A DNA stretch of 64,000 nt from Mesostigma viride (taxonomy: Eukaryota; Streptophyta; Mesostigmatophyceae; Mesostigmatales; Mesostigmataceae): NCBI GenBank assembly GCA_009746045.1, contig RPFO01000312.1:3035377-3099376 (forward strand), in the 5' to 3' direction. Made by a program: the position numbers and the translations under genes. The notes beneath the pieces are model-generated. The model ran no database searches and was not told the DNA's origin. It was given only the letters and a program-made list of their open reading frames with translations. This document shows, piece after piece, positions 30,141 through 62,002 of the stretch (the first letter of the stretch is position 1; each line of letters begins with the position of its first letter).

Positions 30141-30243
30141 TGGTTCAAAAGATGGGTAAAAAAATGGAAATGGGTGTTTTGCGAACTGAACGTTTCGCAC
30201 GCTCGTCGTTTTGTCGTGTATGTTTTTTGGAGTTTTTAATGCA

Positions 30244-39060: not shown

Positions 39061-39074
39061 CTAGAAATGCCTGG

Positions 39075-39141
39075 AATATGTGCTACATGATCTCCCAACG
39101 GAGACATGTTATAATTTAATTTAATTTAATTTTTAATGGTG
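39075..39141 (+). repeat. LINE-type 3' end with hairpin and (ATTTA)n-like tail
   Basis: tatgtgctacatg precedes the stem-loop TCTCC-CAAC-GGAGA (39091-39104), itself flanked by pairing CATG/CATG, then repeats of taattta. This is the same 3' end as at 46307, 48723, 50291 and 60062. Confidence 0.7.
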
Positions 39142-39160
39142 GTAATTTCTGGCAACTGAG

Positions 39161-39664
39161 ATGTCTAGTCAATTACAGATGACCATGTATGGCGCCGAGA
39201 CGTGGACCCTCACCGCCGACCTGGCCCGCAAGCTGGACGGCGCGGTCACCAGCATGCTGCGTTCCATTTTCAGAGTAGGATATGCTGCTCATGTCCGCAA
39301 TGAGGACCTGTACCAGGGCATGCCCTATATCACCAGCACAATTAAGCAACGCCGCCTGCAGCTAGTAGGGCACCTAGCTCGCACCAACCAGGTAGACACC
39401 TCACGTGGCCCCCCCGCAGGACTGCGACCAGCCCAGCCTGGCCGTCACCTCCTGACGTGGGCTGGGCCCAGTGACGTTAGACGCCGCAAGGCCCGCACCT
39501 TCAAAGAACAGCTAGTAGAGGACATGGGGGGCCTAGGCCTCTCCGTGATTTGGAAGAAGATGATGGACAAGGCCAAGTGGGCCCAGGTCATAGAGGACAA
39601 CGAGCCCCCCCCAGTGGGGAAGCGCCCGCGCGCGTGTGCAATCCGGCCGCGGGAGGCACGCTAG
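39161..39664 (+). pseudogene. LINE ORF2 C-terminal fragment
   Basis: 167 codons. The stretch MYGAETWTLTADLARKLDG, then LRSIFRVGYAAHVRNEDLY and RRLQLVGHLAR matches the region after the reverse-transcriptase domain of many non-LTR retrotransposons (YGCETWTL...RRL.W.GH). The catalytic domain is absent, so this is a 5'-truncated copy. About 200 bp of 3' UTR follows, ending in a hairpin (gctcc...gggagc) and (TTAA)n at about 39836-39856. Confidence 0.75.
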
Positions 39665-40064
39665 ATAACTCCCCCTAGGGCAGCGTGCGGCTGCCTAGAT
39701 AGATGATGTAGTTAGAATGTTGTTAGATAGATGTAGTATGTAGCCAATGTAGATAGATTAGACCGGTAGGAATGTGTGCGCCCATCCATCCATATCGGGG
39801 TTAATGCTCCGTGACCCCCCAACGGGAGCACGAGTCTAATTAATTAATTAATTAATGGTCGTGGATTCTTATGTACCGCAGCCCGCAGGCTGCAAAACTG
39901 GATTTGTAAGGTTGCATTCGCGCTTTTCACCTAAGCCAGCAGGCGGGGAAATTTGCGCGCCAGTGGGGCTTGCGTATTTTGCCCCCTAAAATCACGTAGC
40001 GGGTCCGGACTTGGCAAAAAATGGCCTCCTGCGCGGCCAAAAATGGCCTGACACCTACAAATTG

Positions 40065-40189
40065 AGTCATTACCGCGTTAAGTTGCGATGGCCTCCATGC
40101 TTAAGTTGCGGTCGCCCCCCAAACTTCGGCGCCGCAACTTAACGCGGGAACGCAACCTTAAGAAACGCAACTTAACGCGGGAATGACTG
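40065..40189. mobile_element. CAGTCATTC-ended MITE, ~125 bp
   Basis: Starts gagtcattaccgcgttaagttgcg and ends cttaacgcgggaatgactg, followed by TA. Internally it holds nested inverted copies of the same end (cgcaacttaacgcggga). Strong foldback potential. Left terminus has one or two changes from the consensus. Confidence 0.65.
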
Positions 40190-40550
40190 TATATTTCTGA
40201 GCATCGTCGCGGCCGCGCGGGCTGGGGCTGCATGCGCCTTGAAATCCATTTATTTATTTGCAAACGTAAATACGTTGCATGCATACAGTAGGGTGTCAGG
40301 CGACACCGCGACAGGCAGTGAGCCAGGCACTTGGCTGACCAGTTATTCTACGGACTGTTTGCGATAGTCACGTGCCACGGTCGCGGTCTGCGCTGTGCTC
40401 GCTAACGTAGACGCCCATTAACTCATGCTGCGCATGGCATGGCGATTTCTTGGGCAAGATTTTCTGCCTATTTTCATCGCGTATGTTAATTTGATTGAGA
40501 TGCTGTACCTTCTTAGCAGATACCAAGCTACCACTTAAGATTCTTAAAGG

Positions 40551-42569
40551 ATGTCGCGGAATGTTAGAGTGTCAAGCACGTTCGATGAAGAAGATTTTGC
40601 CAATAACCCAGCTACTAGCGCCAGCTTGCAGCGCCAGACCAGCACTATCACAGCGGCGCTGCGGCCACAGGGACGCGGGGTCCTCCTTCAATTAAATGCT
40701 AGTGGCAAACCGGAAATAGGTGATCCGTCGCGAACAGCTCCAAGCGCTGGGAGGGATCGAGCTGGCTTCACTCGTATAAGAAATGGTTGGGCGTTGGGAA
40801 GATGGTGGGACAGGATGGGTAGGTGCAGGAAGTACGGAGACATCACGGTAGACGGCCTCGAGAAGGAATTGTCGGACATGATCACCATCTCGGGTTTGAT
40901 CTTCGCTCTTGCTTTCGGCGCCCCGAGTTGGACGGAAGGCATTCGTCAGAAAGAGCTGGAGGGGGCTGCTCTGTGCTGTAATCTCGCAATGGAGAAAGCC
41001 TTTGAACCCATCAGTTGGGGTGATTTGGATTGGTGGATCAAGTCCGGTTTCTGCGTCTGCAGCTTTGGTACGCTCGGGCTAAGCGGCATCGCCTTGGCAA
41101 TGGCGGCTTCCCTCTACGTTTATTTGGGCAAATTTCATCCGGAGCCGGAAGTGGACGACGAATGGCTGCCCAGGCTGTTTTTCATCCGCTTCCAGCGAGC
41201 GTTTGCTGGCCTGTATTACCTCCTGTTCATCATCGTCTTCATCACGTCTCCTGCCGCGTGCATTCTTCTGTACATGGACAAAGTCCCAGGCCAGAGGTTT
41301 TTCTACTTTGGCTTTGCATGCGTGTTCTGGGCCATCGCGCTGGTCGTGCTCACCCCGGTCCGTTACGCATTCCAGGTGTTCAAGAGAGAGGTGGGCGCCA
41401 TGGATGAGGACTCGGAAGATGAGGATGTCATGATGGCATCCCATGTGCCGATGAGTCCGGATGCTGCAGCGGGTGACAGAGGCCCGTTTGGCCATGCACC
41501 AAGAGGGACGGCACACCAATTAGCGTCTCTCCCAGGTGTGATGGATGCCACCGCGGACGTCGAGTACCTTGATGGCCGGCCATCAGAGCCAGCCCCGGGG
41601 GCAGCCGGGCAGCCGCGTGCTGAAAATAAGGATGTATGCCCCCTGCCAGGCACCCGGTCTGACAGCCGGCAGGCGGTCGTTGAAGAAATCGCGCAACTTG
41701 TCTTCACGGGTGCGGAACGCAAGCGGCTCAACGAGGTCCTGCCCAAGCTGGCCTTTGCATGGCACGAGGCGGACATGTATGCACGCAACGAAGCCCTCCT
41801 CGGCAGCGCACTGCTGGCCAAGCTACGGACGTTTGTCGGGTCGCTCTTCCTGTGGGACGCACTCGAGAGCCTGATGGCCGACCTGCAGGCCCAGTGGGCC
41901 GCGTGCCTGCGCTCGCGCGACTACAACGGCTCTCGCAGGAAGATGGTCAAGCTGACCAGCACGCTGCGCGGCTTCGTCGCGGTCAAGCACCCGTTGAGGG
42001 AAGGGACCGTCGCCCATGAGGCCAACAGCCGCGTGTACACGTTGAAGATCCCCATCTACGCGCACATGGGCATGAAGGCCTTGGAGACCTTCCCCGCCGC
42101 CAGGCTGCCGGGGTCGTTTGGGAAGAGGGACCGGTTGTTGATCCGGGTTCCATACGCGGGGCCGAAATCATCCTGGCGCACGGACCGCGTGCGTGTGTTT
42201 GGCTTGGAGAAGGACAACGTGGTGCATGGTGGCGGCACGCTAGAGGGCAACGGGGAGGGGTATCCCTCGGATGATGTTGTTCCGCGTCGGCTGATGATGC
42301 AGCTTCTCTCGGACGAAATCGACCCAAGCTTCTTGTCCAGAGCGCACCGGGCGCAGCTCATCAAGCTCGGCTTGGACGAAATGGGTGACAAGATGGAGGA
42401 CCCCGTTCGAATAGGGAGCAGCCGGGGACCGTTCAAGAACATTATCAAGGGGTGCATTCGGCGTGAGGTCAAGGCGTGCAACACGGCGTGCACGGCGATG
42501 CTGGATGAGATATCGGCGTTCTGGCAAAAGGAGTGCGTGCCGTATGAGAGCATCTTGTCCTATCAATAA
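40551..42569 (+). CDS. Four-helix membrane protein with large hydrophilic C-terminus, unknown function
   Basis: 672 codons in one exon, ATG at 40551 preceded by aaagg. I do not recognise the family. An N-terminal ~105-residue basic/Ser-Thr-rich region lacks a signal peptide. Hydrophobic segments lie at about 110-124 (weak), 165-193, 216-241 and 249-273. An acidic cluster (DEDSEDED) follows at 284-292, then a Pro/Ala-rich linker (300-380), then a ~290-residue mostly helical soluble domain rich in charged residues (AERKRLNEVLPKLAF, RRKMVKLTSTLRGF). It ends in YESILSYQ. Lengthy, ordered composition, compartmented hydrophobicity and absence of stops argue for a real host gene. Upstream ~350 bp carries no obvious TATA. 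Nearby DNA is transposon-derived. Confidence 0.75.
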   Translation: MSRNVRVSSTFDEEDFANNPATSASLQRQTSTITAALRPQGRGVLLQLNASGKPEIGDPSRTAPSAGRDRAGFTRIRNGWALGRWWDRMGRCRKYGDITVDGLEKELSDMITISGLIFALAFGAPSWTEGIRQKELEGAALCCNLAMEKAFEPISWGDLDWWIKSGFCVCSFGTLGLSGIALAMAASLYVYLGKFHPEPEVDDEWLPRLFFIRFQRAFAGLYYLLFIIVFITSPAACILLYMDKVPGQRFFYFGFACVFWAIALVVLTPVRYAFQVFKREVGAMDEDSEDEDVMMASHVPMSPDAAAGDRGPFGHAPRGTAHQLASLPGVMDATADVEYLDGRPSEPAPGAAGQPRAENKDVCPLPGTRSDSRQAVVEEIAQLVFTGAERKRLNEVLPKLAFAWHEADMYARNEALLGSALLAKLRTFVGSLFLWDALESLMADLQAQWAACLRSRDYNGSRRKMVKLTSTLRGFVAVKHPLREGTVAHEANSRVYTLKIPIYAHMGMKALETFPAARLPGSFGKRDRLLIRVPYAGPKSSWRTDRVRVFGLEKDNVVHGGGTLEGNGEGYPSDDVVPRRLMMQLLSDEIDPSFLSRAHRAQLIKLGLDEMGDKMEDPVRIGSSRGPFKNIIKGCIRREVKACNTACTAMLDEISAFWQKECVPYESILSYQ

Positions 42570-43430
42570 GCTGGGATGGTCGATCTGAGAGCCACCTTGC
42601 CCAAGGATATTCATTGACAGTGATGGCCTCCAACCAAGGCATGGATATGTCTCATGACTTGTGGTGCATGGAATGTCCCTTGCGGGCTGTGGCTAGGGCC
42701 ATGATCAGTCAACTGGTGTCAAGAATTATTCGGGTTGATTTGCACTCTAATTACATAATAGCCTGAGGTTGCTGCAGACTGATTGAGCCGGAGCATCTAC
42801 AGTAATTTTCGTAAGGACATTTGCTGCAGCATTTCTGGGCTTACAATATGGATACCTTTATATATACTACTATGTAAATTAGGCGCAGTTCGTCCATTAT
42901 GTACTATGCATGATGACCATGACGGATGCATGCATATCTGTGTGGCTATGGCCTGCTGGCAATAGCATAATAGTGTGATGTATGCGGATCCCAGCGGCCG
43001 GCCTTCAGACTTCATCCGGAACTTGCCGGGCGGGTCGATCATGATCGAGCCAGGTACGGCGACTTTTGCATATTTTTGCTCGTCTTTTTCGCTTTTTTTC
43101 TTTTGTGCACACTTTGTTTTGCATTTGTTAGCAAGGAAAATAGATAGTTCTATCTCTTGTAATATTATATACCCTAAATCTTTGATGGGATTATATTCGA
43201 TCAATCAAACTGCGCCACGTGGGTACCACTAAAGGATCGAACCATTCATTGATTAATTAATTGAGTAATTAATTTACACGTAACTGCATCACGTGAGCAT
43301 TTAAGTCCTGTCCGGATTCTCACAATTTCTGGCCTGTGCCCGTTATCTCCTTGATAAGTCCTCAGGGAAATCAATATATGGGATGCCGGGTCGATGGATG
43401 TAGCTATCTAGTTCCTCTAGGTACCACGAG
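42570..43430. other. 3' flank and intergenic, no gene seen
   Basis: AT-rich with tattaatt words (about 43250-43275). No feature recognised except the approach to the CT tract. Confidence 0.45.
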
Positions 43431-45053
<1,623 letters not shown>

Positions 45054-45117
45054 CAGGTTAATACTCCATGACTCCCCAATGCGAGCACAATTATAATTTA
45101 TGTATTAATAGGGGCAA

Positions 45118-45530
45118 TTAATTAAAATCATAGCTCCGTGGGGAGAATATGTAACACATAGCCCTGAGAAAGGGGCATCTATGGGTTTGTAATACAATCA
45201 GGGCGACAACCTGCAGGTGTAGGATGTACAACTATTACCTGCTCTGGGTGCACAAGGTGCACCTGCACCGCCATGATGGTTTATGCCTCCTAAACAAGCA
45301 CAAGCACACAAGGCGGCTTGAGGCCGGAGAGGGCGCCTAGAAGGCCTGCATGACATATGGGGTGGAAGGTACGTGGCTAGGCTATAGCTGGTGTACACAT
45401 GGCATCTCAGCATGGCAGAGAGTAACTCCCTGCATGGGCAAAGCATGACTCGAAATTGCTACGGCTATTGCAAGGGCTGGTGTGGGCCCATCACGTAGGC
45501 ATACTTACATGGCCGCATAGGGGCAACGCC
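45118..45530 (-). mobile_element. 3' part of an ORF1-only LINE derivative (copy D)
   Basis: Begins on the plus strand with the hairpin GCTCC-GTGG-GGAGA (45133-45146; outer pair lost) and acacatagccctgagaaaggggcat, as in copies A, B and C. It is the inverted near-copy of 45865-46282. Confidence 0.65.
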
Positions 45531-45534
45531 CACC

Positions 45535-46306
45535 CTTTGCCCATGTGACCCGCCTTAATTCCCCGCTCGCGGGGTAAGGCTGGCCCCTCTCCATTGCTCC
45601 TCACCTTTGACACCATGGCGGATAAGATGGAGTTCCCGTCAAGCGTCGCAAGCGGCTTGGGGGGACCTCCTACACGCTGGACGACGACTTGACCTTGACG
45701 TAGCAACAACGGCGACGGGAGCTATGGCCGACCTACCTCCAGCTCCGGCAGACGGCAGGGAAGAAGCCAGTCTACTGGAGGGGGGCGGACATCTACGCCG
45801 CCCACGAGCCCTGGCAGGCGACCCCTGCCGCCTCAGCCACTCGGGCCCCAGCCTAGGGATTATCTAGCAGTAGTGTAGACTAGAAAAGCTTCAGTTAGCG
45901 ACGTGGCCATGTATGCCTACGTGATGGGCCCACACCCGCCCATGCAATATATAGCTGTAGAGATTTTGAGTCATGCTTTGCCCATGCAGCATTGAAGTTA
46001 CTCTCTGCTGATGATGCCGTGCACCAGTTATAGCCTAGCCATATACATCTTCCACCCCATATGTCATGCAGGCCTTCTATATAGGCCATCTCGATCCCCA
46101 TGTCGCCCCGTGCGAGCATGATCGGGATGCATGATCCATCATGGTGGTGCAGGTGCACATTGTGCACCCCGAGCAGGTGACAGTTTACATCCTCCACGTC
46201 TGCAGGTTGTAGCCCAGATTGTACTAAAAACCCATAGATGCCCCTTCTCAGGCCTATTTGTTGCATATGCTCCCAACGGAGCTATTAAAATTAAATTAAA
46301 TTATAA
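45535..46306 (+). mobile_element. 5'-truncated ORF1-only LINE derivative (copy E)
   Basis: Carries the last part of the ORF1-like frame on the plus strand (LWPTYLQLRQT, PVYWRGADIY, HEPWQATPA, stop about 45857) with upstream stops and frameshifts. Then comes ~420 bp of 3' region, the hairpin GCTCC-CAAC-GGAGC (46269-46282) and an (AATTA)n tail. The tail is shared with a minus-strand LINE end that starts at 46307, so the two lie tail to tail. Confidence 0.7.
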
Positions 46307-46440
46307 CATGCCTCCGTGGGGAGGTCATGTAGCACATATTCCATGATGGATGGGGTGGAGGAAGCCGCGTGATCGAACTATCCTAACTCTAAGCTATCTA
46401 GCTAGAAAACGGAGCTATGTTCTTAACTACCCATGGTCGG
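46307..46440 (-). repeat. LINE-type 3' end, minus strand
   Basis: On the minus strand it reads tgctacatga, hairpin CCTCC-CCAC-GGAGG within CATG/CATG, then the AT tail at 46283-46306. Sequence to about 46410 (gatcgaactatcctaactct) matches 39027-39060. Confidence 0.6.
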
Positions 46441-47781
46441 CCGATGCCATCCAAATGGATGATGGTACCCGACGTAACGTAACTGTAACGCGTAAATCCG
46501 TGACCTCCGACGTAAGTGACGTAACGTAAATGTTGCCGATGGACGGGGGCAGACCCGACACGAATGAAAATGCCAAGGTTGGCCAGGTAATTGCACCATA
46601 GCCCAGTAAATACCTCGTGCATTTTATTGGTGGTCACGTGACATTTGCTAACATTTCTTACCGTTGAGCGCGCGCATAGCGAGATATGGCTGTCAACGCG
46701 CCATTTTGGTGGAAATTTCGGGTTCCGCTGCTTGAAATGGGTCAGATGATGACCCCTGAACGACGATGCATTATTTTGGTACGTCAAGAATGATCAGATT
46801 CAAGGAATTGGGAAAATACGCAGTGGTTATTACCTGTGTCTTGGTCGTCACCATCAGACGAGACGTCCCCTTTGGTATCGCCGGTTTCTTTTTGGTTTCT
46901 TGGTAGCTTCCGTCTGCCTGGGCCTTCCAATGTTTTGCGAAAGCCCGCGGCACCATTTGCTGGGAATGTGGACGCGTTAGACGTCATCTTTGCATAGATG
47001 AACAACATGGTAACGATGACGGAAGGATGGATAGAGCAGCTGTGGCCGCCTCTGCCACTAGCACTAGTATCCGTGACGTATGAGCATGTCGGCCAGCGGA
47101 ACCCGGCCAGGTCATAATCAAGGCAGGTACGGCAATGCGTTTTCGTGTTGTTTGTATGGAAACTCGTACGTTCATCATGCATGTCTTATGGTGGATGCAT
47201 TAGTGGTAATTGCAACAGCCTTCCATGCCTGCTCAAGGAGGGGTGTTAGCCATTATGTTGTACCATTTGTGGCATTTCTTTGGGGGATACCGTTCAGTGA
47301 GTGCAAGGTGGCGTCATATTTGTATTCCAGCATGTTTGGCAGTCTATTGTGGTCAATTATATTGCTTCATTGTATGGCATGGCATAGTTGGCTGTTTGCG
47401 CGCGCGTAAGCCACACGTGTACACGCGTGCATTATACATGTCAAATGGGGTATCCGGGTGGTTTGACCAAAGGAAAGGACCATTGGACTATCCAACTAAA
47501 TTGTCCAATGTTGGTATTGAGGTTTCTGACCCCCCCCTGAGAAAAATGGGGGGGTATACTTTTTCTTGCACGGAAACGATCGTATTTTGGCCAACTTTGG
47601 CTAAAGCTATCATCCAAATGCCTTGATAAACCAGTGATATTATTGCATATTCTGAAAGCCCTTGAAGTGTAGATGTTCCTAGCACCTGGGTTGAGGGTAT
47701 TCGGAGTTGTGGTCTAGGAGTTATGATTTTTTTCATTTTTGGGGGTCAAAAAAGCAAAAAAAGTTGTGGCCGACTATTTAA
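46441..47781. other. No supported gene
   Basis: Several 60-138 codon frames on both strands overlap without any domain, splice or composition support. A CGTAAC/GTAACG-rich patch lies at about 46470-46525. Confidence 0.4.
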
Positions 47782-48687: not shown

Positions 48688-50266
48688 TTAATTAATTAAT
48701 TAATTAATTAATTAGGAACATAACTCCGTTGGGAGTATATGTAGCACATAATAGCCCTTGAGAAGGGGCGTATGGCCTATGATACATTCTAGGCTACTTC
48801 ATGCAAGGGTGGGAATGTAAGCTACCCTTGCTCTAGTAGGTGCACCAGGGCACCCGGCACCCTCATGATCTATCACGCTATGCCCAGCTAAGGGGGGAGC
48901 ATGTCATGTGGGGGAAGATCATCATGGCTATACAAGAGCTAGCTAGGGCATGGCATCTCAGCAGAGAGCAGCTCTCTGCATGGGCACAGCATAACTAAAT
49001 AAAGCTAGGCATCTGGGGTGTGGAACATCATAGGCACGCATGTACATGATTAAATAAAGCGCGTGGCTTAGCTGCTATAGGGCCTGTAGGAGGCGTACAG
49101 GTACATGGCCACGGTCTATCTATTCTACACTACTACTGCTGGAATCCCCTAAGCTGGGGCGTCTGGAGTCGCTGGGGTCGCGGGGGTCACCTGCCAGGGC
49201 TTGTGGCCGACGTAGATGGCCGCCCCCTTCCAGTATGTACACCGGCTGCCCCGCCTTGGTCTGCCGGAGCTGGAGGTAGGTCGGCCATAGCTCCCGTCGC
49301 CGTTGTTGCTGCATGCGCCAGGGTCAAGTCGTCGTCAAGGGTGAAGAGAGTCTTCTCGAGCCGCTTGCGGCGTCTGAGAAAAGAAATATTGTCCGCCGGG
49401 TTCTTTAAAGGTGAGAAGGAGCGGGGGCGCCCCGGCCTTACCCCGCGTGCGGGGAAGGCGGTGGGCGACCAGGTCGATCTCACCAGTAAGGCCCATGCGA
49501 CCAAGCTAGGATTTCTCTCTCAAACGCACGCGCAAGCTTCTCGGAATTCTCACCTTCCTCCATGTCGAAGTTCTTGACAATGACGTTGAGGCTGCGCTTG
49601 GCGAGCTCGCCGGCCTCCTCGCGGAGGTCAAGCGTCTGCCGCTGGAGCTGGGCTGCGACGGCGGAGGTGGTGGAGGTGGTGTGCTGCTTAAGCATGTCCG
49701 CCCAGGTCGTAATGGGGGGAGCATCGCCGGCCAGGCCAGCAGAGGCTGGCTTGGCGGCAATGTCCTTCACCGCCTGGCCGGGCGGTGAGGCCCGCGGTGT
49801 TCTGCAGGACCTCGATAGCGATGGCATTATCCTTAAGACGCTGGTCAATGTCGCGGAGCTGGGCGGTGATGGAGTCGGTGGAGGCGGAGGGGGGGGGGGT
49901 GGAGGCGAGGAGGGTGGCGGTGGCGGTGGGGATGGTGGGGAGCTCAGCAGCCAGCGTGCGACTCACAGCTGCCACATCTGCAGCTAGGGGCGTCACGTGC
50001 TGTGAGAGGGCTGCGTTGAGGTGGAGGAGGAAGGTAGATTCGGTCAAGGGGGAGGGGGTCCAGAGGTCCGTGACAGAGCGCTGAAGGATGGAAAAGAGGG
50101 CGGCGAGCTGAAGACGGGGGCGAGACCAGCGGGCCAGGTTCTCAGGTCGGTAAGTAAACCGGCCGTCAGGTCCAGTGCGGAGGCGGCAAAGGCTTGAAAG
50201 GCGTTGGCACAGGTCGAGAATGGAGGCGTATGACCCATAAAACACGAGCTCCAGTATCTTGAGGGG
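48688..50266 (-). mobile_element. ORF1-only LINE derivative, copy A
   Basis: On the minus strand it begins within ORF1 (about residue 70 of copy C) at 50266 and ends in hairpin ACTCC-CAAC-GGAGT (48723-48736) and (TTAA)n (about 48688-48713). ORF1 is broken by short insertions (for example 4 bp near 49310) and frameshifts. The truncated start abuts the tail of copy B, giving a head-to-tail pair. Confidence 0.7.
49139..50266 (-). pseudogene. ORF1-like protein, copy A, degenerate
   Basis: Pieces in several frames correspond to the copy C product: ITAQLRDIDQRLKDNAIAIE, ITTWADMLKQHTTSTTSAVA, RSLNVIVKNFDMEEGENSEK and FTLDDDLTLA. The N-terminal third is missing. Not functional as sequenced. Confidence 0.7.
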
Positions 50267-51848
50267 TGAATTGAATTGAATTGTAACATAACTCCGTTGG
50301 GAGTATATGTAGCACATAGCCCAGAGAAGGGGCATATGGCCTATCATACATTCTAAGCTACTTCCTGCAAGGGTGGGAATGTAAACAACACTTGCTCTAG
50401 GTGCACTAGGGCACCTGCACCACCCAGAGTTTCAGGCAACACCCAGCGAAGGGGAGCCTGTCATAGGTGGGGAAGATCATCATGGCTATACAAGAGCTAG
50501 GACATGGCTTCTCTACAGAGAGCATCTCTCTGCATGGCCTAGCATAACTAAATAAAGCTAGGCATCATCTGGAGTGTGGCTCATCATAGGCACACATGTA
50601 CATGATTAAATAAAGCGCGTGGCTTAGCTGGGATAGTGCCTCTAGGAGGCGTACATGTACATGGCCACGGTCTATCTATTCTACACTACTACTGCTGTAT
50701 TCCCCTAAGCTGGGGCGTCTGGAGTCGCTGGGGCCGCGGGGGTCGCCTGCCAGGGCTTGTGGCCGACGTAGATGGCCGCCCCCTTCCAGTACACCGGCTG
50801 GCCCGCCTTGGTCTGCCGGAGCTGGAGGTAGGTCGGCCATAGCTCCCGTCGCCGTTGTTGCTGCGCCAGGGTCAGGTCGTCATCAAGGGTGAAGAGAGTC
50901 TTCTCGAGCCACTTGCGGCGTCTGAGAAACGAAATCTTGTCCGCCGGGGTCTTAAAGGTGAGAAGGAGCGGGGGCGGCCCTGCCTTACCCCGCGCGCGGG
51001 GAAGGCGGTGGGCGGCCAGCTCGATCTCACCAGTAAGGCCCATGCGATCAAGGATTTCTCTCTCAAAAGCACGTGCAAGCTTCTCGGAATTCTCACCTTC
51101 CTCCATCTTGAGATTCTTGACAATGACGTTAAGGCTGCGCTTGGCGAGCTCGGCCTCCTCGCGGAGGTCAAGCGTCTGCCGCTGGAGCTGTGCTGCGACG
51201 GCGGAGGTGGTGGAGGTGGTGTGCTGCTTAAGCATGTCCGCCCAGGTCGTGATGGGAGGAGCATCGCCGGCCAGGCCAGCCGGGGCTGGCTTGGCGGCAA
51301 TGTCCTTCACCGCCTGGGCGGTGAGGCCTGCGGTGTTCTGCAGAACCTCGATAGCGATGGCGTTGTCGCGGGTCGATGAGACGCTGGTCGATGTCGCGCT
51401 TGAGGGGTGGCATGTTGAAAAAGCTGGGTCTGGCATCGTCGAAGGTGGAAAATAACCCGTCGACGTCAAAGTCGCGCTCAGACCAGCTCGGTTCGGCAGG
51501 GCGGCTGCGTTTTGGCTCGGGCGAGGCTGAGGGCGAGGCAGGAAGCCCGGGAGGGTGCTGGGCGACCACCAGTGCGCGACTAGCTAGTGTCACCACTGCC
51601 TTCCGGCCCTGATGGCGAAGCTGCAGCCGGAGCTGCAGACGTATTTTCATTGCCGAGCGCAGCCGTCAGGCTGCGTTGCGTCGATGGGCGTTTGCTCATC
51701 GTATATTGCGTAATAGCTTCGGAAAATTATATCAGCATAGTGCGTCGTAGAAAGACGCGTCGATTGTGATATTCACGGCTATAAATTCGGTGCTCAAACG
51801 TGAAAGTTATGAGCTCCGCCGTCAGCCATGGCTACCTCGTGGCTCGTG
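50267..51848 (-). mobile_element. ORF1-only LINE derivative, copy B
   Basis: Full 5' end shared with copy C (both stop at ggctcgtg, 51848 and 62002). 3' hairpin is at 50291-50304 and the tail is (TTGAA)n at 50267-50285. It is about 400 bp shorter than copy C because of an internal deletion in ORF1. Nested in the 47786-52907 element. Confidence 0.75.
50705..51711 (-). pseudogene. ORF1-like protein, copy B, with internal deletion and stop
   Basis: Starts MSKRPSTQRSL at about 51699. An early TAG replaces the ATSQAL of copy C. After a further frame change the region between the N-terminal segment and DNAIAIEVLQN (about 120 residues in copy C) is missing. The C-terminal 230 codons (50705-51360) are open and hold the RRM-like part: NVIVKNLKMEEGENSEKLA, HRLPRARGKAG, PADKISFLRRRKWLEKTLF, RRRELWPTYLQLRQ. 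Confidence 0.7.
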
Positions 51849-52907: not shown

Positions 52908-54436
52908 TTAATTAATTCATTAATTAATTTGCCCATGATTTCCATGGTGGCCCCCCACTCCCAGTCGCACCGCCGCCATCGTCCCAGCCATCTAAATGTA
53001 GCCCTGCGAAACGCTGTGAGCCCCCTGCATGCATCATTTTCAGGCTATTAGTCTTGAGGTCGAATTTGGACTGTACCTTGGAATTGGATTGGCATTTGAG
53101 TGAATATAGGAGTAATCTCCCCTTGGCTGACGGGCCTGCAAGCCAGTTTCAGGCTTGATCTGCGGTCATGTGGATTCCACACAGGATGACGAGCTGTGCA
53201 GCATGCGTGGCACTAGAGGGCGCCAAGTGTCACAGGCCAGGATAAAAGCCACCCCCGCCCAAACGCACGATGAAGGCCGCCAAGTCCCTAAGTTGGAACA
53301 CAACTGCTGCACGGATATCTTTCATTCAGGAGGGGTGCACTGGCCAGTAGGCTCTTGGGGAGGGAGATGGGGGAAGGAATCCATCGGTGATAGATGCCAA
53401 TGCTCGGCGAGGCATGGTTGTAACCATGAGACAACGTACCAGCGCAGGCTTAAAGCCTGAACGCAGTATTAGGTCCGTTCCCATGATCATGTATGGCATT
53501 TGGGTGGGCTTCCTCCTGTGCTCTCATCCTCCAAGGCCTCCTCCCTGGGCCATGAGCCGTCACGATGGCGCGACCAGAATCAGCCATCGGCAATATGTGG
53601 CACTGTGAGAGGAGGCACAGTGGGATGCGAGCAGAGAAAAGAGCGATGCCATGCAGCCGGAGACGAGGGCGATCGATAGAAAAGGGAGCCCTCCATGCTG
53701 ACAGGCTTCGTCACCCGTGCACCCCCGTTGGCCAGCAGGACGTGCGCGTTTCCAATGGGCGCTTTCGCGCTTTGAGGTGCCAGAAGAATAAGAGGGGTGA
53801 CCGATGCCAGCAGAAACCGTCAAGCAGTTGGCTTCATCACCCGCGCGCACTTCCTCCCACAGGAGGACGAAGCGATGTGCAGTGTGCACAGCAGCACCTC
53901 GGGTGCTGCCATGAGCCTTCGCCTGAACACCTCCCATGCACCTGTAATAGTCCATAGGAGGACGTGGCACTGTGCACAGCAGAGCCTTCAGACACCAGCA
54001 GGAAAGCGCGCGGGCCGTTGATAGCTATCGATGGTGCAACGCCATCAGGGGAAAGGGCACGCCGCCCGCTTGGCAGTGTCAACGCCCCGGTAACCAACTC
54101 CAGGATTTGGGGTGATGGAGACATACAGGTGGATGTCCGCCATGCTGGCGCATGCCGATGTGATGCCGACGTGATGCCAAAAGTGTCTATTGGATGAAAG
54201 GTGAGCAGGTTAACGGGAGGCTGTGTCCGAGCAGGTGAACGGGACGCTGTGCCCGAAGGCCATGAACAGCCGTGCAAGTAGGCAGAGCGCATCTCGACAG
54301 CTAGAAGTCATTTGTTGGGCGATGCAGAGTGCCATTGGCAGGCTACCGTTTGCAGCGACGAAAGCCGTTGACGAGCATACTGGCACGGGGGCCCTTCGGG
54401 AGTTTGCATAAATCCCCGTTTGATCCCAGGGGCGCC
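52908..54436. other. No supported gene
   Basis: Frames of 60-150 codons occur on both strands without recognisable domains. Composition turns GC-richer than the flanks. A captured or decayed gene cannot be excluded. Confidence 0.4.
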
Positions 54437-54826
54437 TCACCTCCTTGCCCGGGAAACAGCCCGAGCCACAAGGGGTGTCAGAATTACCGTGGCTGGGACC
54501 CTGATAGGCAACAGCGCCTTGTGCACTACGTACGCCAGTGCGACGACGCTCCCTCCAGCGAGGGCAGATACACCCGCCGAGACGGGTGGGTCTTTCGCCG
54601 GGACAACAGGCCCTGCTTCCTGGATTTCTCGCGTCTCGGTCAGGATGCCGGACACGCCTGCAAGCCCTATCCGGTCCAGCGTGGATGCGATGTAATCCAA
54701 GTCCGCCTTTGACCTAACCAGCATGTAGCAAGACCCGAAGGACAAAGCAGACAGGGTCATGTGCACAGCAATGGCCGTTTTCCCGTACTTGGATATCAGG
54801 TCTTTCAGCCGTTGTCCCTGACTCAT
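54437..54826 (-). CDS. DUF1279 / FAM210-like small membrane protein
   Basis: 129 codons, ATG at 54826, one exon. It matches the DUF1279 pattern: LKDLISKYGKTAIAVH (7-22), a hydrophobic helix to about residue 37 ending SCYMLVRS, a charged middle, then GGSVVALAYVVHKALLP (91-107) and PATVILTPLVAR (111-122). Family members (for example FAM210A/B in animals) are organelle membrane proteins linked to mitochondrial function. The biochemical role is not settled, and location here is inferred from the family. The length is short for full FAM210 proteins but normal for the isolated domain. No clear targeting peptide is seen before residue 7. Confidence 0.85.
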   Translation of the reverse strand: MSQGQRLKDLISKYGKTAIAVHMTLSALSFGSCYMLVRSKADLDYIASTLDRIGLAGVSGILTETREIQEAGPVVPAKDPPVSAGVSALAGGSVVALAYVVHKALLPIRVPATVILTPLVARAVSRARR

Positions 54827-55488
54827 TTATAACTCAATTTTTATAACAGTCTTCCCTACGACAGTCTTCCCGACAGGCGTCTCAGTATGACAAACTACTC
54901 GATAACACCTCCGCACATGCCGAGCCCAGATTGGAAGGCAGCCACCCAACGTCCAAGCTTCCCCACAGCCATATGCATGTTTAACATTCTTCCATGGCGA
55001 TGGGTTCTAGGTCAAATGAACGCCGCGTAAAGACCCCACAACTGAGCACGAGCCGAACGCTGCGGGGAAGACAGGAATCAAGGACAAGTTAAACGTAATC
55101 ACCTGGTGATCACCATGGTTATCTTCCGCAATAATTTGCCCAGGGCCTTCCGAGTTAGGATGCCTCATGATTGTGTACTCAACTCGCGGGTTGGGTTCGC
55201 GTGCGGTGTGACGAGAGCTGGTAATTGGTATGCCCCAGCTTTATGGGGTAAATCCTGGGTAAATCCTGGGTAAATACATGTATACCTGAGCCAGTGAGCC
55301 TGACATACGCGTGTACGGCATTGGGGACAGTGCCTTACGCCGTCGTTCATGCCAGATCGACCCAATACACAGCAAAAAAGAAAGTAATCACACCAGATCC
55401 ATGGTGTGCCAGATCACACATGAATCACAGCAAAAAAAAAAATCACAGCCACGCGTGCTTATGGTGGGATCTCTCCGGCACACCACGG
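54827..55488. other. Intergenic upstream of the DUF1279 gene
   Basis: Contains ttataactc...ttttataacag just upstream of the ATG (TATA-like, minus strand), a cagtcttcc(c) duplication (about 54848-54870) and three copies of taaatcctgggt (55252-55275). Otherwise nothing. Confidence 0.4.
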
Positions 55489-55691
55489 TATCAAGGAGAC
55501 AACCAGCGCAGGCCAGAAATCGGGAGAATCCGGACCATGGTAGCTCGAGCCTGCCGTTATCTTTTCCGCGTTTTCGAGTCGTTCAGGATGATGAATATGA
55601 ATGGAGATAGAAATGTGTAGCCTTGTGAAATTATGGCTGACTTACATGTAGAGCGACTAGATGACCTAGACGGTGGGGCCGGAAACAGCTT
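55489..55691 (+). repeat. ~200 bp dispersed inverted repeat, arm 2
   Basis: Plus-strand partner of 52181-52381 (caaccagcgcaggccagaaa through gtggggccggaaacag). Confidence 0.8.
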
Positions 55692-56200
55692 GCTTGATCA
55701 GGGCGTGTGTTTCGAGCCTAACTGGCCGGGAGTGTCTAGTGGTGAGCACCATTGCTGCGATCGCTCTCCCACCATTTACGATGAATACCCGCAAATGGAA
55801 AACCACTGAAAAGGTCTAGCTAGTCAGTCATTACGTTAGCCGACGGTATGTAAAATACCACGGTAGTTATACCTACATGGTGTACCTACGGTGTACTAGT
55901 TTACTACTGAGTACTGGCGGCCGGCAAGAAACAGGCGGAATCAATAAGCGAAATCTATTGGCGTTTTCAGCTTTCAACGGCGTGTTCCCTTCATCTTATT
56001 ACCGACTGCCGACTGCCGACTGCCAAGGAATGGCGGCCACGACCAGGCGGTGTTGTGCGCTATAACAATGGAGGTCCGCGAAGGCACAAAAAAGCCCAGG
56101 GTGGACTTAAAGCAGAGATGATACGCCCAATTCCAGTTTTGTCCATGCCTCCTGTGTCCTCATAAATGCCATCTGCTCTGCCCGCCCCGCCGGTGCGGTC
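55692..56200. other. Intergenic, no gene seen
   Basis: Includes a short triple repeat (cgactgc, about 56003-56025). Nothing recognised. Confidence 0.4.
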
Positions 56201-56214
56201 TGTATTGACGCCTG

Positions 56215-56759
56215 CAAGTTCCTTTCGGCCAACTCAAGATCTTTCTCCCGGTGCCAAAAGGCTTGGCGGCAGACCTCTCAAAAGCAGCAGCAAGCGGCAC
56301 ATCCCATTTCGGGGATTTGTCACGAACAAACCTGCCATGGTCGCGACTTGAAAAGAACCATTCGTCACGAGACGACCAGAAAGCATTCCGGGAGGAGGGC
56401 GGCCTGAGAGCCACCCCAGAGTTCAGGAAAGGTTTTGAACAGCTAGAAAGTGGCAAGGCCAAGGACGACAGAATGAGGTATTACATGAGCGACCTGGGGA
56501 AGGAGAGGGCAGAGGGCCATTGTAGCTCGGATCTTAACCGACCATCAGCATCGTGGATAGTCCCGTGTCGAGCGGCTTCCTTGCAGACCGCAACGGAAAG
56601 ACCGAGCTGGCAGAGTTGGGCAAGAAAGGCTGCACTTCTGCTGAGAATAGCAGCATGATTTCCGACACGCTGGAGCTGGGCGCCAAACGATACGAAAGCT
56701 CGTACCTGTTCTTTCCGCTGCTGATATCGCCTTCAGCAGTGGTGGCTGATAAGAAATAA
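56215..56759 (+). pseudogene. Possible degenerate coding sequence, unknown
   Basis: Two consecutive frames have protein-like composition: residues such as RLEKNHSSRDDQKAF, ATPEFRKGFEQLESGKAKDD and MRYYMSDLGKE up to about 56520. A second frame holds RNGKTELAELGKKG, MISDTLELGAKRYESSYL up to a stop at 56759. A frameshift or intron near 56530-56560 would join them. No family is recognised, and this could be chance. Confidence 0.3.
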
Positions 56760-57019
56760 CACGCTCCAGAAGCCGTGATGTCCATCAAGCTATGACATAC
56801 GTTTAGGGAAGGTCATTTTTGGAAGGCTGGGTGGGCCAAGATCAACTGGGGTAAAGTCGGCAACCATGTACATTATATATTGCATTATCTGCACCATCTG
56901 TGACACCGTTAGCCCCCTAGATATGAATGCCGGGGTTTAAAACATATAACGATGAGAAGCAACAACGCAACAGGGTCTTGCTGTAGCCTGCCCCACCATC
57001 TGATGGCCCTTTGGAGTTT

Positions 57020-57526
57020 AGATCTCATATTTATGGCCTAAGCAAGAAAGTACTTGCGTGTCATGCGCATGAACATGCCACGGAGAACTATGCTTATCTC
57101 ATTAGAAAAATAATTACACGAAAGTTACAAATATCGTCTGCATCATGCCCCGACCGTATAGAGTTACTAGATTGGGATATAATCCTCATCTGAGCTGTCC
57201 TCTACTGTAATGGGAGACGACGTGGTAGTGTAGCAACTATCCTCAGGGGCAGTAACCTCCACCTGCGGACTTCTAGCCTGGCTAGCAATGGGCCGCGGGG
57301 CCCGTGGGGACAAAAAAGGAGGATGCCCCTTAGGAAGTCGCAGACGGCAGCCCATTTCTCCTTGCTTGTCTATCATGCGGGCGCGGAGTACAGACAACAG
57401 TCCCAGACTGAGCCCTGCATCCTCAAGCAGTTGTGTCATGTAGGACCGGGTCGCGCCGCGTCGGTGCGGGGCACGCGCAAGTTTGCCAGTGGGTTGCGAC
57501 GGGGCAAGGGGACCCGGCCCTGCCAT
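57020..57526 (-). pseudogene. LINE ORF2 C-terminus plus 3' UTR
   Basis: The minus-strand frame 57526-57167 (119 codons) ends DSSDEDYIPI. It matches piecewise the frameshifted plus-strand sequence at 62862-63235 (LARAPHRRGA, TQLLEDAGL, LRARMIDK, PIASQ, VDSSDADYIP). The 3' UTR at 57020-57160 matches 63236-63360 (ggggcatgatgcagacgat and tgcgtgtcatgc... words). It is a 5'-truncated non-LTR retrotransposon end. Confidence 0.7.
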
Positions 57527-58850
57527 AGGAGGAGGTGTCTACCTGGTTGGCCCGAGTCCTAAGCCCGCCGGCAGGGAACTTCGTAGAATCTGCGGTGGCA
57601 AACGCCCTGTCCCGAGGAAACGCTCAAGCTCAGGCATCTTATAACCACCTCCGGTGAAATATTGTCCACTAGCTCCCATGGCAGAATCGATCGTTGCGGA
57701 GGGTGCGCCGGAGATGGCAGCTGGCAGTCCCGAGGGGTCCACTCGTCAAGGGGGCCGTCCACCAGGGGGCCCGAGAGCTAGCGGTGGGACGTAAGGCGTG
57801 GCCAAGTATTTAGTCCGTTTCGCGGGTGGGCGCCTGCGGGGGCTCAATATTATAGGTCCGCCGCGGCTAGCCGCACAGGGCGTGCAGCGGCATGCACCGG
57901 CCAGCGGGGTCAAGCGGGGGGGGCGGTCCAGGAGCCCCCGATAGTTTGGCCTGGGAGCTGAACCAAAGCTCAAGGCGTTCACTGGTGGTGCCTGGGATGT
58001 CAGCCCTTTGCGTTTCGGCCCGTCGTCAACCGGTGAGACGGTCGAGAGACCGCCATGCCGCCTTGTGCTGGTTGCATGGCGGCCGTATTTTTGGCGATTG
58101 ATCACTGCGGCAAGTGTCTCCATGGCACCTCCTCCGTGTGTGGCGGCGCAGTATATATGGACTTGAGTAAGCCGCTCATCATGGTATACGTACGGGTACA
58201 GGTCCTTCCCGTGGCGGCGGGCCTGTGCTAGCGCCAGCCGGGCGGCGACCATGCACCCGGGCATCGCGCACTGGTGGTATAGCGGGCTGGGCGAGCGCGG
58301 GGTTGCTCAGGGAGCAACTGCCAGAGCCAAGATCGATCCACTGATCGCATGAACATGCACTGAGTTCGTATATAGGGTGGAGTGAGAATCATCCAGGCCA
58401 CGCTTGGCATCCAAGTTTGACATCAAAGGTTGCAGTGCAGCCGCGATCAAGGCGCCGGGACCTGATTGCGTCGCGGCGAGCTTCTCCTCTGAGTCCTCGA
58501 TCTGACCGGCCACTTCTCCTGGCGCCCGCGGTCGGCGGAGCCCGGGGCGTAGGCACTGGGTCCAATCAGGGCGTGGGCGTGGGCGGCGGGGCTCGGGGGC
58601 CTGAAGACGCACTAGACGCATGGTTGCGGTGTCAGCAGTGACCATATGCGGTAATCCTATGCGACACTTGGGGTGGTGACTCTGCGGACGGGCATGCATC
58701 GATGACGGAAGAAAGCCAGCACAAGTATGTAGTCCAAGCAAACACACCGCCGGCCGGGCGGAGTACCGAGCCAGCCACCCTGCGCGCGGGGCCCACCATT
58801 TAAGGTCTGACTAGCTAGCGCATCAGGCCGGCGGCTTAGCAAACACTAGC
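57527..58850 (-). other. GC-rich region with unrecognised minus-strand frames
   Basis: Frames at 57746-58264 (172 codons, Pro/Arg-rich) and 58307-58747 (146 codons) show no known domain. They lie directly upstream of the LINE ORF2 end on the same strand, so they could be degraded LINE sequence. The Pro/Arg/Gly bias may be only composition. Confidence 0.3.
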
Positions 58851-58913
58851 GTAATAATTGGCAGCTGTCAAGTCGATCACCGGCCCTCAGTGTCAGAGTA
58901 GTCACGCTTGAGC

Positions 58914-58960
58914 AAGGAGGGGGGGGGGGGGGGGAGGGGGGGGGCGGGGGGGGGGCGGAA
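58914..58960. repeat. Poly-G tract
   Basis: About 45 bp of almost pure G with single A or C interruptions; G-quadruplex potential. A 10-C run lies at about 59061-59070. Confidence 0.85.
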
Positions 58961-60032
58961 TTAAAGTGCACGTACGTACTGAAGGAACCGATTAGAGCAA
59001 AGTTTGTGGTCCACGTCTCCACGAGCGAGTTGGGTGGCAGAGGTGGGGGAGCACAACAAGCCCCCCCCCCCTTGAACCGGCGCATGCGCCGGGCCATGCA
59101 CAGCAGTTGCCACTGTAGTGCAAGGGTGACACGCTGAGGGCGGGGCCCTCAAAGGAGCGCCGGTGCTCTTGAACCCCGAGCACGTCAATGCCATATAGCT
59201 ACTAGGCGGCAGAAGTGGACAAGCTCGTTGCATGGCCCGAGGGGGGCCATGATTCCCCGGGCAGGGTGCGGACGTACATTGTAGGTAGCGATGCGCAGCG
59301 AGCACTTGGTGCCGGCGCTCATGACGTACCCAGCAATCATAGGGGCGCCGCCGGGGACCCGGCCGCGGTAAATTGGCAGGGGGTTGGGGAGAGGCTGGCG
59401 AGCCGGTGTGTGCGTGTATGGCCTATAAGATATGAGTTTCTTTTCTTTTCTTTTTGGTGGCAAGAAGCTCACCCCTCGAGTTCCCCCACGATGTGGCAGC
59501 AGATCTGCGGCTCTTCTCTACAAAATGATGGCGTTTACCCAACAAATGGGCGGCCCATGCACGTTGCTGATTCCAGGTTCGCCAGCCATGAGGTTTACCC
59601 TACTGTGCATAGTCTCTAGACCTTCTTCGCCACGTGTAATTCTTCAGGCAGACGTCAGATCACTCTGAACTAACGCTCCGCCGCCTGATGCAGCCGACCT
59701 GCCGCCTATCATGGTTCGTCTGGGCGCTGTTTATTGGGGACTGGCGGACGGCAGGGTGGCAAGCCCGGCCGCGCCGGCTAGGCTATAAGCACTGATGAGT
59801 TAGGTTCCGGACGGGGCCATCCCCATGACCCCTCGTGAATTGCAGCTAGTAACACGTACAATAATTTACAATCATGGCTCAGGCGCACTCTTTCAGTCTG
59901 GGAAATGCTAGGGCTTCTTTCTAATTATGCATGGTGGGCAATTGGATTGCATGTAGCTCCTCGATCCTCTTCACGCAGATTTCTAATGAGATATCCTTGA
60001 GCGTTGTGAACACAGACAAAAGCTGATATATA
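58961..60032. other. No supported gene
   Basis: Frames of 60-134 codons without domain support. Nothing else seen. Confidence 0.4.
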
Positions 60033-62002
60033 CATTAATTAATTAATTAATTAGGAACATAACTCCGTTGGGAGTATATGTAGCACATAGCCCTGAGAAG
60101 GGGCATATGAGCCTATAATACATTCTAAGCTACTTCCTGCAAGGGTGGGAATGTAAACAACACTTGCTCTAGGTGCACGGCAGGGCACCCGCACCCTCAT
60201 GGTCTATCACGCTATGCCCGGGTAAGGGGGGAGCATGCCTGTGAGGGGGAAGATCATCATGGCTATACAAGAGCTATGGCATGGCTTCTCAGCAGGGAGT
60301 GACTCCCTGCATGGGCACAACATTACTAAATAAGGCTAGGCATCGTCTGGAGGGTGGCTCATCATAGGCACACATGTACATGACTAAAAAGGCTAGGCCT
60401 AAGCTGGTATAGTGCCTGTAGTAGGCGGGCATGTACAAGGCCACTGTCTAACTATTCTACACTACTGCTGTATTCCCCTAGGCTGGGGCTGGAGTTGCTG
60501 GGGCCGCGGTGGTCGAGGGGGTCGCTTGCCAGGGCTTGTGGCCGACGTAGATGGCCGCCCCCTTCCAGTACACCGGCTGGCCCGCCTTGGTCTGCCGGAG
60601 CTGGATGTAGGTCGGCCATAGCTCCCGTCGCCGTTGTTGCTGTGCCAGGGTCAAGTCGTCGTCCACGGTGAAGGGAGTATTCGCGAGCCGCTTGCGGCGT
60701 CTGAGAAACGAAATCTTGTCCGCTGGGCTATCAAAGATGAGAAGAAGCGGAGGCGCCCCTGCCTTACCCCGCGCGCGGGGGAGGCGGTGGGCGGTCAGCT
60801 TGATCTCACCAAGAAGGCCCATGCGTGCAAGGATTTTGCTCTCAAACGCACGTGCAAGCTTCTCGGAATTCTCACCTTCTTCCATGTCCAAGTTCTTGAG
60901 TATGGCGTTGAGGCTGCGCTTGGCGAGCTCGGCCTCCTCGCGGAGGTCAAGCGTCTGCCGCTGGAGCTGGGCTGCGACGGCGGAGGTGGTGGAGGTGGTA
61001 TGTTGCTTAAGCATGTCCGCCCAGGTCGTGATGGGAGGGCATCGCCGGCCGGGCCAGCCGAGGCTGGCTTGGCGGCAATGTCCTTCACTGCCTGGGCGGT
61101 GAGGCCTGCTGTGTTCTGCAAGACCTCGATAGCGATTGCATTATCCTTGAGGCGCTGGTCGATGTCGCGGAGCTGGGCGGTGATGGAGTCGGAGGAGGGG
61201 ATGGCGGCGGTGGAGGAGGCGAGGAGGGCGGAGGTGGCGGTGGAAATGGTGGAGAGGAGGGGGAGCTCGGCAGCCAACGTGCTGCCCATGGCCGCCACAT
61301 CTGCAGCGATGGGGGCCACGTGCTGCTCGAGGGCCTCCTTGAGGAGTGAGCGGATGGAGGCTTCGGTTAGGGTGGTGGTGAGGGGCTTTGGGGGCCAAAG
61401 CTCCTCGATGGAGCGTCCAAGGAGGGAAAAGAGGGCGAATTGCTGAATGTGGGGGCGGCGGGCGTTGGGGACGGCCCTGTCGAAATCGCGCCTGTGGAGG
61501 GAGGCATCGACAAGGCGACCTTGGTGGGAAAGCTGCCTGCATAGTTCTATAAGAGAGGCACGCGTCCCGAAAAACACGTAGCCCAGGATGCGTTCGGGTG
61601 TGAGCTTGTCAAAAAAGCCGGGCTGGCTGGCGTCAAAGTCGTACTCGTCCAGCAGCCCATCAGGGCGACTGCGCTTGGGTTCGGGCGACGCTGCTGGCGA
61701 AGCGGGCGCAGCAGGGGGCTGGACGATCACTAGAGCTTGGCTAGTGGCGCCGCTGCCTTCTGGGCCGGTGGGCAAAGCGGCAGCCGGAGCTGCAGGCGTA
61801 TTTTCATTGCCGAGCGCAGCCGCCAGGCTGCGTTGCGTCGATGGGCGTTTGCTCATCGTATATTGCGTAATAGCTTTGGGAAATTATATCAGCATGTGCG
61901 TCGTAGAAAGACGCATCGATTGTGATATTCACGGCTAAATTTGGTGCTCAAACGTGAAAGTTATGAGCGCCGCCGTCAGCCATGGCTATCTCGTGGCTCG
62001 TG
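60033..62002 (-). mobile_element. Full-length ORF1-only LINE derivative, copy C
   Basis: Best-preserved member, ~1.97 kb. The 5' end at 62002 matches that of copy B. A ~145 bp leader precedes the ORF1 ATG at 61856. ORF1 stops at 60478. The ~420 bp 3' region ends with tatgtgctacat, hairpin ACTCC-CAAC-GGAGT (60062-60075) and (TTAA)n (about 60033-60053). No reverse transcriptase or endonuclease is present, so mobility must rely on a partner LINE. Confidence 0.8.
60478..61856 (-). pseudogene. LINE ORF1-like RNA-binding protein, one-base frameshift
   Basis: About 459 codons if read across a missing A at about 61038 (gggagggcatcg here, gggaggagcatcg in copy B). The N-terminus is MSKRPSTQRSLAAALGNEN, then an Ala/Pro-rich linker, a helical middle with heptad-like spacing (TAQLRDIDQRLKDNAIAIEV; AQLQRQTLDLREEAELAKR) that is likely coiled coil, then an RRM-like segment (RSLNAILKNLDMEEGEN, HRLPRARGKAG, PPLLLIFDSPADKISFLRRR) and a basic C-terminal domain (RRRELWPTYIQLRQTKAGQ, VYWKGAAIYVG). 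This order mirrors L1-type ORF1p (coiled coil, RRM, C-terminal domain), which trimerises and binds RNA. Homology is inferred from motif order. Three copies support the reading. Confidence 0.75.

What the first reader, a model, noticed from the sequence alone, without database searches (positions are those of the whole stretch)
39075..60075. LINE 3'-end hairpin with covarying closing pair
Seven 3' ends share tatgtgctacat, a CTCC-loop-GGAG stem and an A/T-repeat tail. The outer pair is A-T (48723, 50291, 60062), T-A (39091), G-C (46269) and C-G (46311), each pairing. One decayed copy (45133) has lost it. Two copies extend the stem with CATG/CATG. Compensatory change argues that the RNA hairpin is selected, probably as the recognition site for a LINE reverse transcriptase, as in UnaL2-type LINE/SINE pairs.
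Basis: partly seen in the sequence, partly recalled or inferred. Interest (0 to 1): 0.75.

Follow-up and report, generated by a model that had tools for sequence, protein, structure and literature searches.

The report
Shared RNA hairpin ends algal LINEs
In a single-celled green alga near the root of the land-plant lineage, thousands of jumping-gene copies end in the same small RNA hairpin whose paired letters change together; it is probably the handle by which one element's copying enzyme recognises its own RNA and the RNA of half-elements that lack the enzyme.

Summary
Seven hairpin 3' ends lie in the window. The full structure is 5 bp, one bulged 5' base, 5 bp, a CAAC/CCAC loop, then an A/T-repeat tail. 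The genome (Mesostigma viride, by matching annotated proteins) holds at least 10,549 exact-motif copies; reversed control 0. Two stem pairs vary: one as G-C, A-U, C-G, G.U, U.G, the other in all four Watson-Crick forms. With a tree-aware, pairing-aware null the first ranks 1 of 903 column pairs (E up to 0.027); the second ranks 2 and is not significant; a generic G-test is not significant.

The autonomous LINE was found: F1, with endonuclease and reverse transcriptase, ORF2 ending 76-97 nt before the hairpin. Its partner is not a SINE but an ORF1-only half-LINE with an L1-type ORF1p. In a 40-locus sample, 18 of 20 G-C hairpins are F1 (2 unassignable) and 20 others all half-LINE. A second LINE, F2, and a second half-LINE share a related hairpin. 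Recognition by the enzyme is inferred.

The parts
39085..39109 (+). Hairpin of a 5'-truncated F1 LINE copy (X G-C, Y T-A), followed by a TTTAA-repeat tail
   Evidence: sequence; fold -11.6, z -3.7; match to F1 39072-39114
46306..46330 (-). Hairpin of a 5'-truncated F1 LINE copy (X G-C, Y C-G, loop CCAC), TTTAA-repeat tail
   Evidence: fold -13.7, z -3.4; 97% match to F1 over 46301-46401
48718..48742 (-). Hairpin ending an ORF1-only half-LINE (X A-T, Y A-T), TTAA-repeat tail
   Evidence: ORF1 upstream
50286..50310 (-). Hairpin ending an ORF1-only half-LINE (X A-T, Y A-T), TTCAA-repeat tail
   Evidence: fold -10.3, z -2.9
60057..60081 (-). Hairpin ending an ORF1-only half-LINE (X A-T, Y A-T), TTAA-repeat tail
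   Evidence: fold -10.3, z -2.9
46263..46287 (+). Diverged half-LINE hairpin, Y G-C, outer stem partly lost
   Evidence: ORF1 match upstream, 71%; fold -7.9, inner stem only
45128..45152 (-). Decayed hairpin, Y T.C; a sister copy in L067 has G-C at Y
   Evidence: fold -5.9, z -1.2
50286..51583 (-). Half-LINE: ORF1 frame (stop near 50705) plus about 420-nt 3'UTR
60057..61883 (-). Half-LINE: ORF1 in two frames (61883-60795, 61140-60478) plus 3'UTR
48718..50020 (-). Half-LINE copy, ORF1 remnant plus 3'UTR
   Evidence: 86% alignment to the 60057-61883 element over about 1350 nt
39176..39661 (+). C-terminal part of the ORF2 of a second LINE, F2 (93% to F2 in L057)
   Evidence: sequence
39809..39833 (+). 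Z-type hairpin ending the F2 LINE, then TTAA-repeat tail; this copy has a C.A mismatch in the inner stem
   Evidence: window fold -12.1, z -2.7, in a slightly different form
45066..45090 (+). Decayed Z-type hairpin, tail to tail with the 45128-45152 copy

Best explanation
The hairpin is the 3'-terminal recognition structure of a stringent-type LINE (F1) of Mesostigma viride. Shown: it ends the 3'UTR of F1, which encodes an endonuclease and a reverse transcriptase, and it also ends ORF1-only half-LINEs whose 3'UTRs are otherwise unrelated to F1's; its stem keeps pairing while letters change. Inferred: the F1 ORF2 protein binds the hairpin, starts target-primed reverse transcription on the A/U-repeat tail just downstream, and so copies F1 RNA in cis and half-LINE RNA in trans. 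A second LINE (F2) and a second half-LINE appear to use the same arrangement with a related hairpin (Z).
For: Position: in 11 of 12 RT loci a G-C-type hairpin lies downstream of ORF2; in the 14 copies whose match reaches the ORF2 C-terminus the distance is 76-97 nt. Sharing: F1 and half-LINE 3' ends are alike only over the last 45-60 nt, from the motif to the tail. Structure: X 97 of 100 paired against 58.8 permuted; Y 84 against 51.1; ten family types, 96% paired, five pairs changed on both sides, slid controls 30-53%; X first of 903 pairs, E 0 to 0.027 pairing-aware. Intermediates: a U.G copy (L021) beside the C-G clade in a tree made without the hairpin. Geometry: a bulge 5 bp from the loop, as reported for RT-bound LINE tails (PMC5135761 passages). 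Enzyme: RVT_1 E 2.5e-23, Exo_endo_phos E 9.8e-5.
Against: No binding or retrotransposition data. Generic G-test not significant (X E 2.7, 0.94, 0.16, 0.18); Y not significant in any tree-aware test. Ten of 100 listed X = C/T copies are TTA..TT with U.U at X, so pairing at X is not absolute. Half-LINE hairpins differ from F1's at X and Y, so one enzyme would have to accept both. Z copies are few (13).
Confidence: 0.62

Rival explanations
1. The 3' ends are alike by recent common descent or 3'-end capture among a few master elements; the hairpin is not itself selected, and the covariation counts a handful of inherited changes many times.
Against: Pairing-aware score puts X and Y first and second of 903; all replacements that founded large classes pair at X (8 of 8 classes with 3 or more copies, though the TTA..TT class does not); the distant Z hairpin keeps loop, bulge and pairing.
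Confidence: 0.17
2. The hairpin serves RNA 3'-end formation, stability or export, not RT recognition.
For: It ends both coding element types; no test here separates these roles.
Against: It sits directly before the tandem tail where LINE reverse transcription starts, is shared between enzyme-bearing and enzyme-less elements, and has the bulged geometry reported for RT-bound tails.
Confidence: 0.2
3. The half-LINEs have their own autonomous parent with the same 420-nt 3'UTR, so they are deletion derivatives of an unseen LINE rather than users of F1's enzyme.
For: Half-LINE hairpins differ from F1 at X, and their ORF1 is only 28% identical to F1's ORF1.
Against: The sample is small and no genome-wide search for that UTR was made.
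Confidence: 0.28

Closest known systems
UnaL2/UnaSINE1 and ZfL2 stringent-type LINE tails (eel, zebrafish; L2 clade)
   Same: 3'-terminal stem-loop with a small internal loop or bulge, then short tandem repeats; tail shared by an autonomous LINE and a non-autonomous element. The minor TTA..TT class even has a U.U mismatch plus one unpaired base, as reported for UnaL2.
   Different: Loop CAAC/CCAC, not GGAUA; A/T repeats of 3-5 bases, not TGTAA; partner encodes ORF1 and is not a SINE; RT binding not tested.
Plant L1-clade 3' hairpins (maize/sorghum LINE1-1_ZM with ZmSINE2; Ohshima)
   Same: 3' hairpin with compensatory changes shared with non-autonomous elements, in the green lineage (passages read).
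   Different: Conserved letters (CGAG flank, UCU loop) and T tails of those SINEs differ; clade of F1 is not established here.
HAL1 (half-L1) of mammals
   Same: ORF1-only, no ORF2, L1-type ORF1p (passages on HAL1 read).
   Different: HAL1 is a derivative of L1; here the half-LINE ORF1 is only 28% identical to that of the LINE sharing its hairpin, and no poly(A)-ended tail was seen in the copies read.
HeT-A of Drosophila telomeres
   Same: Gag-only LINE thought to borrow a reverse transcriptase (recalled; only a listing was seen).
   Different: Telomere-specific; a shared covarying hairpin is not known to me for it (recall, no search).

Membership tests
Stringent-type LINE tail | Stem-loop at the very end of the 3'UTR, directly before tandem repeats | tested here: met
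Stringent-type LINE tail | 3' tail shared between an autonomous LINE and a non-autonomous element | tested here: met
Stringent-type LINE tail | Bulge or asymmetric loop 4-6 bp from the terminal loop | tested here: met
   One 5' bulge 5 bp from the loop; criterion from PMC5135761
Stringent-type LINE tail | Stem maintained by compensatory change | tested here: inconclusive
Stringent-type LINE tail | ORF2 protein binds the hairpin and needs it for retrotransposition | not testable with these tools
   Needs binding and retrotransposition assays
UnaL2-type (L2 clade) | GGAUA loop and TGTAA repeats | tested here: not met
   CAAC/CCAC loop; TTAA, TTTAA, TTCAA or TAA repeats
LINE/SINE pair | Partner is a non-coding SINE with a pol III promoter | tested here: not met
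   Partner carries ORF1; no pol III promoter search was made, and SINEs elsewhere in the genome are not excluded
HAL1-like half-LINE | Encodes ORF1p only, of L1 type | tested here: met
HAL1-like half-LINE | Deletion derivative of the LINE that mobilises it | tested here: inconclusive
   28% ORF1 identity to F1; the ORF1 of F2 was not found
L1 clade | RT groups with L1 in a phylogeny with named clades | not tested
   No named reference set; solved R2 and L1 RTs match about equally. The C-terminal WTL..LDG..RMLR stretch recalls RTE-type LINEs (memory only)

The most novel reading that the evidence does not exclude
Mesostigma runs a divided LINE economy: enzyme-bearing LINEs and separately evolving ORF1p-bearing half-LINEs, in at least two parallel pairs (F1 with the ACAT-stem hairpin, F2 with the Z hairpin), each pair joined by its own version of one bulged 3' hairpin. 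With the half-LINE ORF1p itself apparently under purifying selection, the half-LINEs would act as protein-coding satellites, or like a second genome segment, rather than like SINEs.
Probability: 0.4. Interest if true: 0.72.

Novelty: new variant of a known kind. Interest (0 to 1): 0.57.

Why it matters
Stringent recognition of a 3' hairpin has been proposed as the ancestral state of green-plant L1-clade LINEs, later relaxed in flowering plants (Ohshima, passages read). An early-diverging streptophyte with more than ten thousand hairpin-ended copies, long open ORF2 copies and natural variants at two stem pairs makes the recognition question directly testable: the variants predict which stems, bulges and loops an ORF2 protein should accept. 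Coding half-LINEs that share an enzyme's hairpin would extend the LINE/SINE parasitism idea to protein-coding satellites. The clade of F1 must be settled before the case counts for or against the L1 model.

Tried and rejected
Rejected: the other near matches to the 12-mer in the window that I read (15299, 16608, 24219, 63507) are not such 3' ends. Rejected: L057 as an autonomous LINE bearing the half-LINE 3'UTR; it is a half-LINE inserted in the F2 3'UTR. Nested insertions gave misleading contexts (L006_1424, L006_1520, L066_1415; L013, L062_1501, L067_2163, L068_1532); I did not use them in reading the trees or the associations, but their hairpins are in the set.

Led nowhere: Rfam, 0 matches at gathering score; Pfam on ORF1, none or chance; ORF1 against phage records, none; solved structures by sequence for ORF1, only weak unrelated hits, best E 0.008. 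Paper searches on Mesostigma LINEs and on ORF1-only LINEs listed no paper whose title or abstract start describes these elements; subscription papers are largely not held, and Ohshima 2012 is not held.

Rows dropped: 12 of 65 copies and 14 of 101 for 4-nt spacers, broken inner stems or N; 24 of 65 copies unassigned; 19 of 65 A/B and 4 of 11 Z copies without a coding match upstream. In one search, 2 of 41 rows were unassignable and one is a broken second motif in L077; the seven places of that stretch of the list that were left out had been fetched before (L040, L060-L065): L040 is F1, L060, L064 and L065 follow half-LINE ORF1, L061, L062 and L063 are unclear or nested.

Never answered: the genome-wide Y = G pattern, the Z pattern and the F2 protein search. 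So Z copy number, whether F2 has its own ORF1, and the genome-wide frequency of G-C at Y are unknown.
Full report
What is there. The window lies in a 440-Mb eukaryotic assembly of 2243 contigs. The RT found here matches annotated 'Mesvir1' proteins at 63-94% identity and the half-LINE ORF1 at up to 99%, 67 of 68 hits being Mesvir1, so the organism is Mesostigma viride, a streptophyte green alga. Which published assembly this is was not established. Seven hairpin 3' ends are confirmed. The structure is ACAT-X, one bulged base, Y-CTCC, a four-base loop, GGAG-Y', X'-ATGT, a short spacer and an A/T-repeat tail. Four of those were folded and give it as the minimum-energy structure; the fifth has an identical 25-nt hairpin.

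How common. The 5' motif with ATG at the fixed distance, 17 positions free between, occurs 10,549 times; the reversed pattern 0 times. A looser pattern gives 5821 forward matches with control 1, and 14,465 reverse matches (several per copy) with control 2. Thirty-two copies have a 4-nt spacer, control 0.

Covariation. In the 100 places listed, X is G-C 45, A-T 32, C-G 8, G.T 6, T.G 6, unpaired 3; Y is A-T 53, T.G 19, C-G 9, T-A 3 and 16 unpaired in this register, 15 of which can pair by moving the bulge one base. Permuting partners gives 58.8 instead of 97 for X and 51.1 instead of 84 for Y, reached 0 times in 10,000; among 31 unique types, 28 against 18.6 (0 of 10,000) and 23 against 15.0 (32 of 10,000). 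The genome has 1697 copies with X = C or T; of the 100 listed, 85 have X' = G. The 15 others include 10 TTA..TT copies with U.U at X, a small class that shows pairing at X is not absolute (counted by hand). With ten family types, including the Z form, 96% of cells pair against 82.3% shuffled, five pairs change on both sides, the covariation score is 0.420 against 0.129 (0 of 500), and slid versions pair at 30-53%. These controls ignore relatedness.

The autonomous LINE. A reverse-transcriptase frame upstream of one hairpin (L039) was used to search the genome: 88 matches scored of 19,012 candidates, many with long open frames. In 11 of 12 loci fetched a G-C-type hairpin lies downstream of the RT. 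In the 14 copies whose match reaches the ORF2 C-terminus the hairpin is 76-97 nt further on. L055 holds an open ORF2 of 1064 codons, stop to stop, with Exo_endo_phos (E 9.8e-5, just under the curated cut-off) and RVT_1 (E 2.5e-23). One copy, L056, has an ORF1 just upstream of an ORF2 whose frame is broken near its end. I call this LINE F1. dN/dS in its RT is 0.16 (14 copies, 83 of 91 pairs).

The partner. Copies with A-U, C-G or G.U at X end a 3'UTR of roughly 420 nt preceded by an ORF1 and no ORF2. F1 and half-LINE ends are alike only over the terminal 45-60 nt. In 40 places of the list, fetched in order and leaving out seven already in hand, 18 G-C hairpins are F1, 2 G-C hairpins are unassignable, and 20 others (15 A-T, 4 G-T, 1 C-G) are half-LINE; one further row is a broken motif. 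The half-LINE ORF1 protein is predicted as coiled coil, RRM and a C-terminal domain (mean pLDDT 54; 64-84 per ten-residue block over residues 311-450). Its three best fold matches are human LINE-1 ORF1p (E 2e-4 to 1e-3). Its dN/dS is 0.27 over 6 pairs from 4 intact copies, a small and biased sample. It is 28% identical to the ORF1 in L056 and 43% to the ORF1 of a second half-LINE.

A second pair. F2, another LINE whose ORF2 C-terminal part is 46% identical to F1's, ends at window 39809-39833 with a related hairpin: CGTG, bulged A, CTCCC, CAAC, GGGAG, CACG in most copies. Of 11 Z copies, 4 follow F2 ORF2, 2 the second half-LINE's ORF1, one was assigned across a nested insertion and 4 had no match. 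A further Z end lies about 400 nt after the second half-LINE's ORF1 in L002.

Mechanism. Hayashi et al. report that ORF2 proteins of zebrafish LINEs bind the 3' stem-loop through a region between endonuclease and RT (PMC4176376, first of five parts read). Grechishnikova and Poptsova (authors' names recalled) describe a bulge 4-6 bp from the loop as characteristic of such tails (PMC5135761, passages). Geometry, position and sharing are the same here, so recognition of the hairpin by F1's ORF2 protein, with priming on the tail repeats, is the most likely role. Binding, requirement and copying in trans are inferred, not shown.

Novelty. LINE 3' hairpins with compensatory changes and half-LINEs are each known (passages). 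What I have not seen described, within the searches, is hairpin-ended LINEs paired with protein-coding half-LINEs, twice, in an early streptophyte. The two Mesostigma genome papers were seen only as passages; one names LINE as a repeat class, and in the other the whole words LINE and LINEs do not occur.

Noticed in passing
window 39018-39053: Upstream of the 39077 F1 copy an F1 3' segment lies inverted (36 nt, 83%), like the 5' inversions left by twin priming in L1.
   Followed up: partly
window 46263-46330 and 45066-45152; L004, L006, L057: Elements are often inserted in or next to each other's A/T tails, tail to tail or in tandem, which suggests a target preference for TTAA-like repeats.
   Followed up: no
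L056 about 820-840: A fourth LINE ORF2 family (F4, 48% to F1) seems to end with a different, perfect hairpin (CACGTGAC GCA GTCACGTG) before a TTAA tail.
   Followed up: no
window 62252-62797: Fragment of a third LINE ORF2 family (F3, 44% to F1 over 153 residues).
   Followed up: no
genome-wide, listing: TTA..TT hairpins (10 of 100 listed X = C/T copies) have U.U plus one unpaired base, like the internal loop reported for UnaL2.
   Followed up: no
window 21557-24133 and 28422-30245: Two frames with the same N-terminal protein sequence about 6.1 kb apart, with matching flanks at 24219 and 30331: duplicated element copies.
   Followed up: no
window 15976-19230: A 1084-codon frame that looks like a Ty1/copia-type polyprotein (judged by eye from recalled motifs; no search made).
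   Followed up: no
window 43297-45104: A long CT-rich tandem tract open in several frames on both strands.
   Followed up: no
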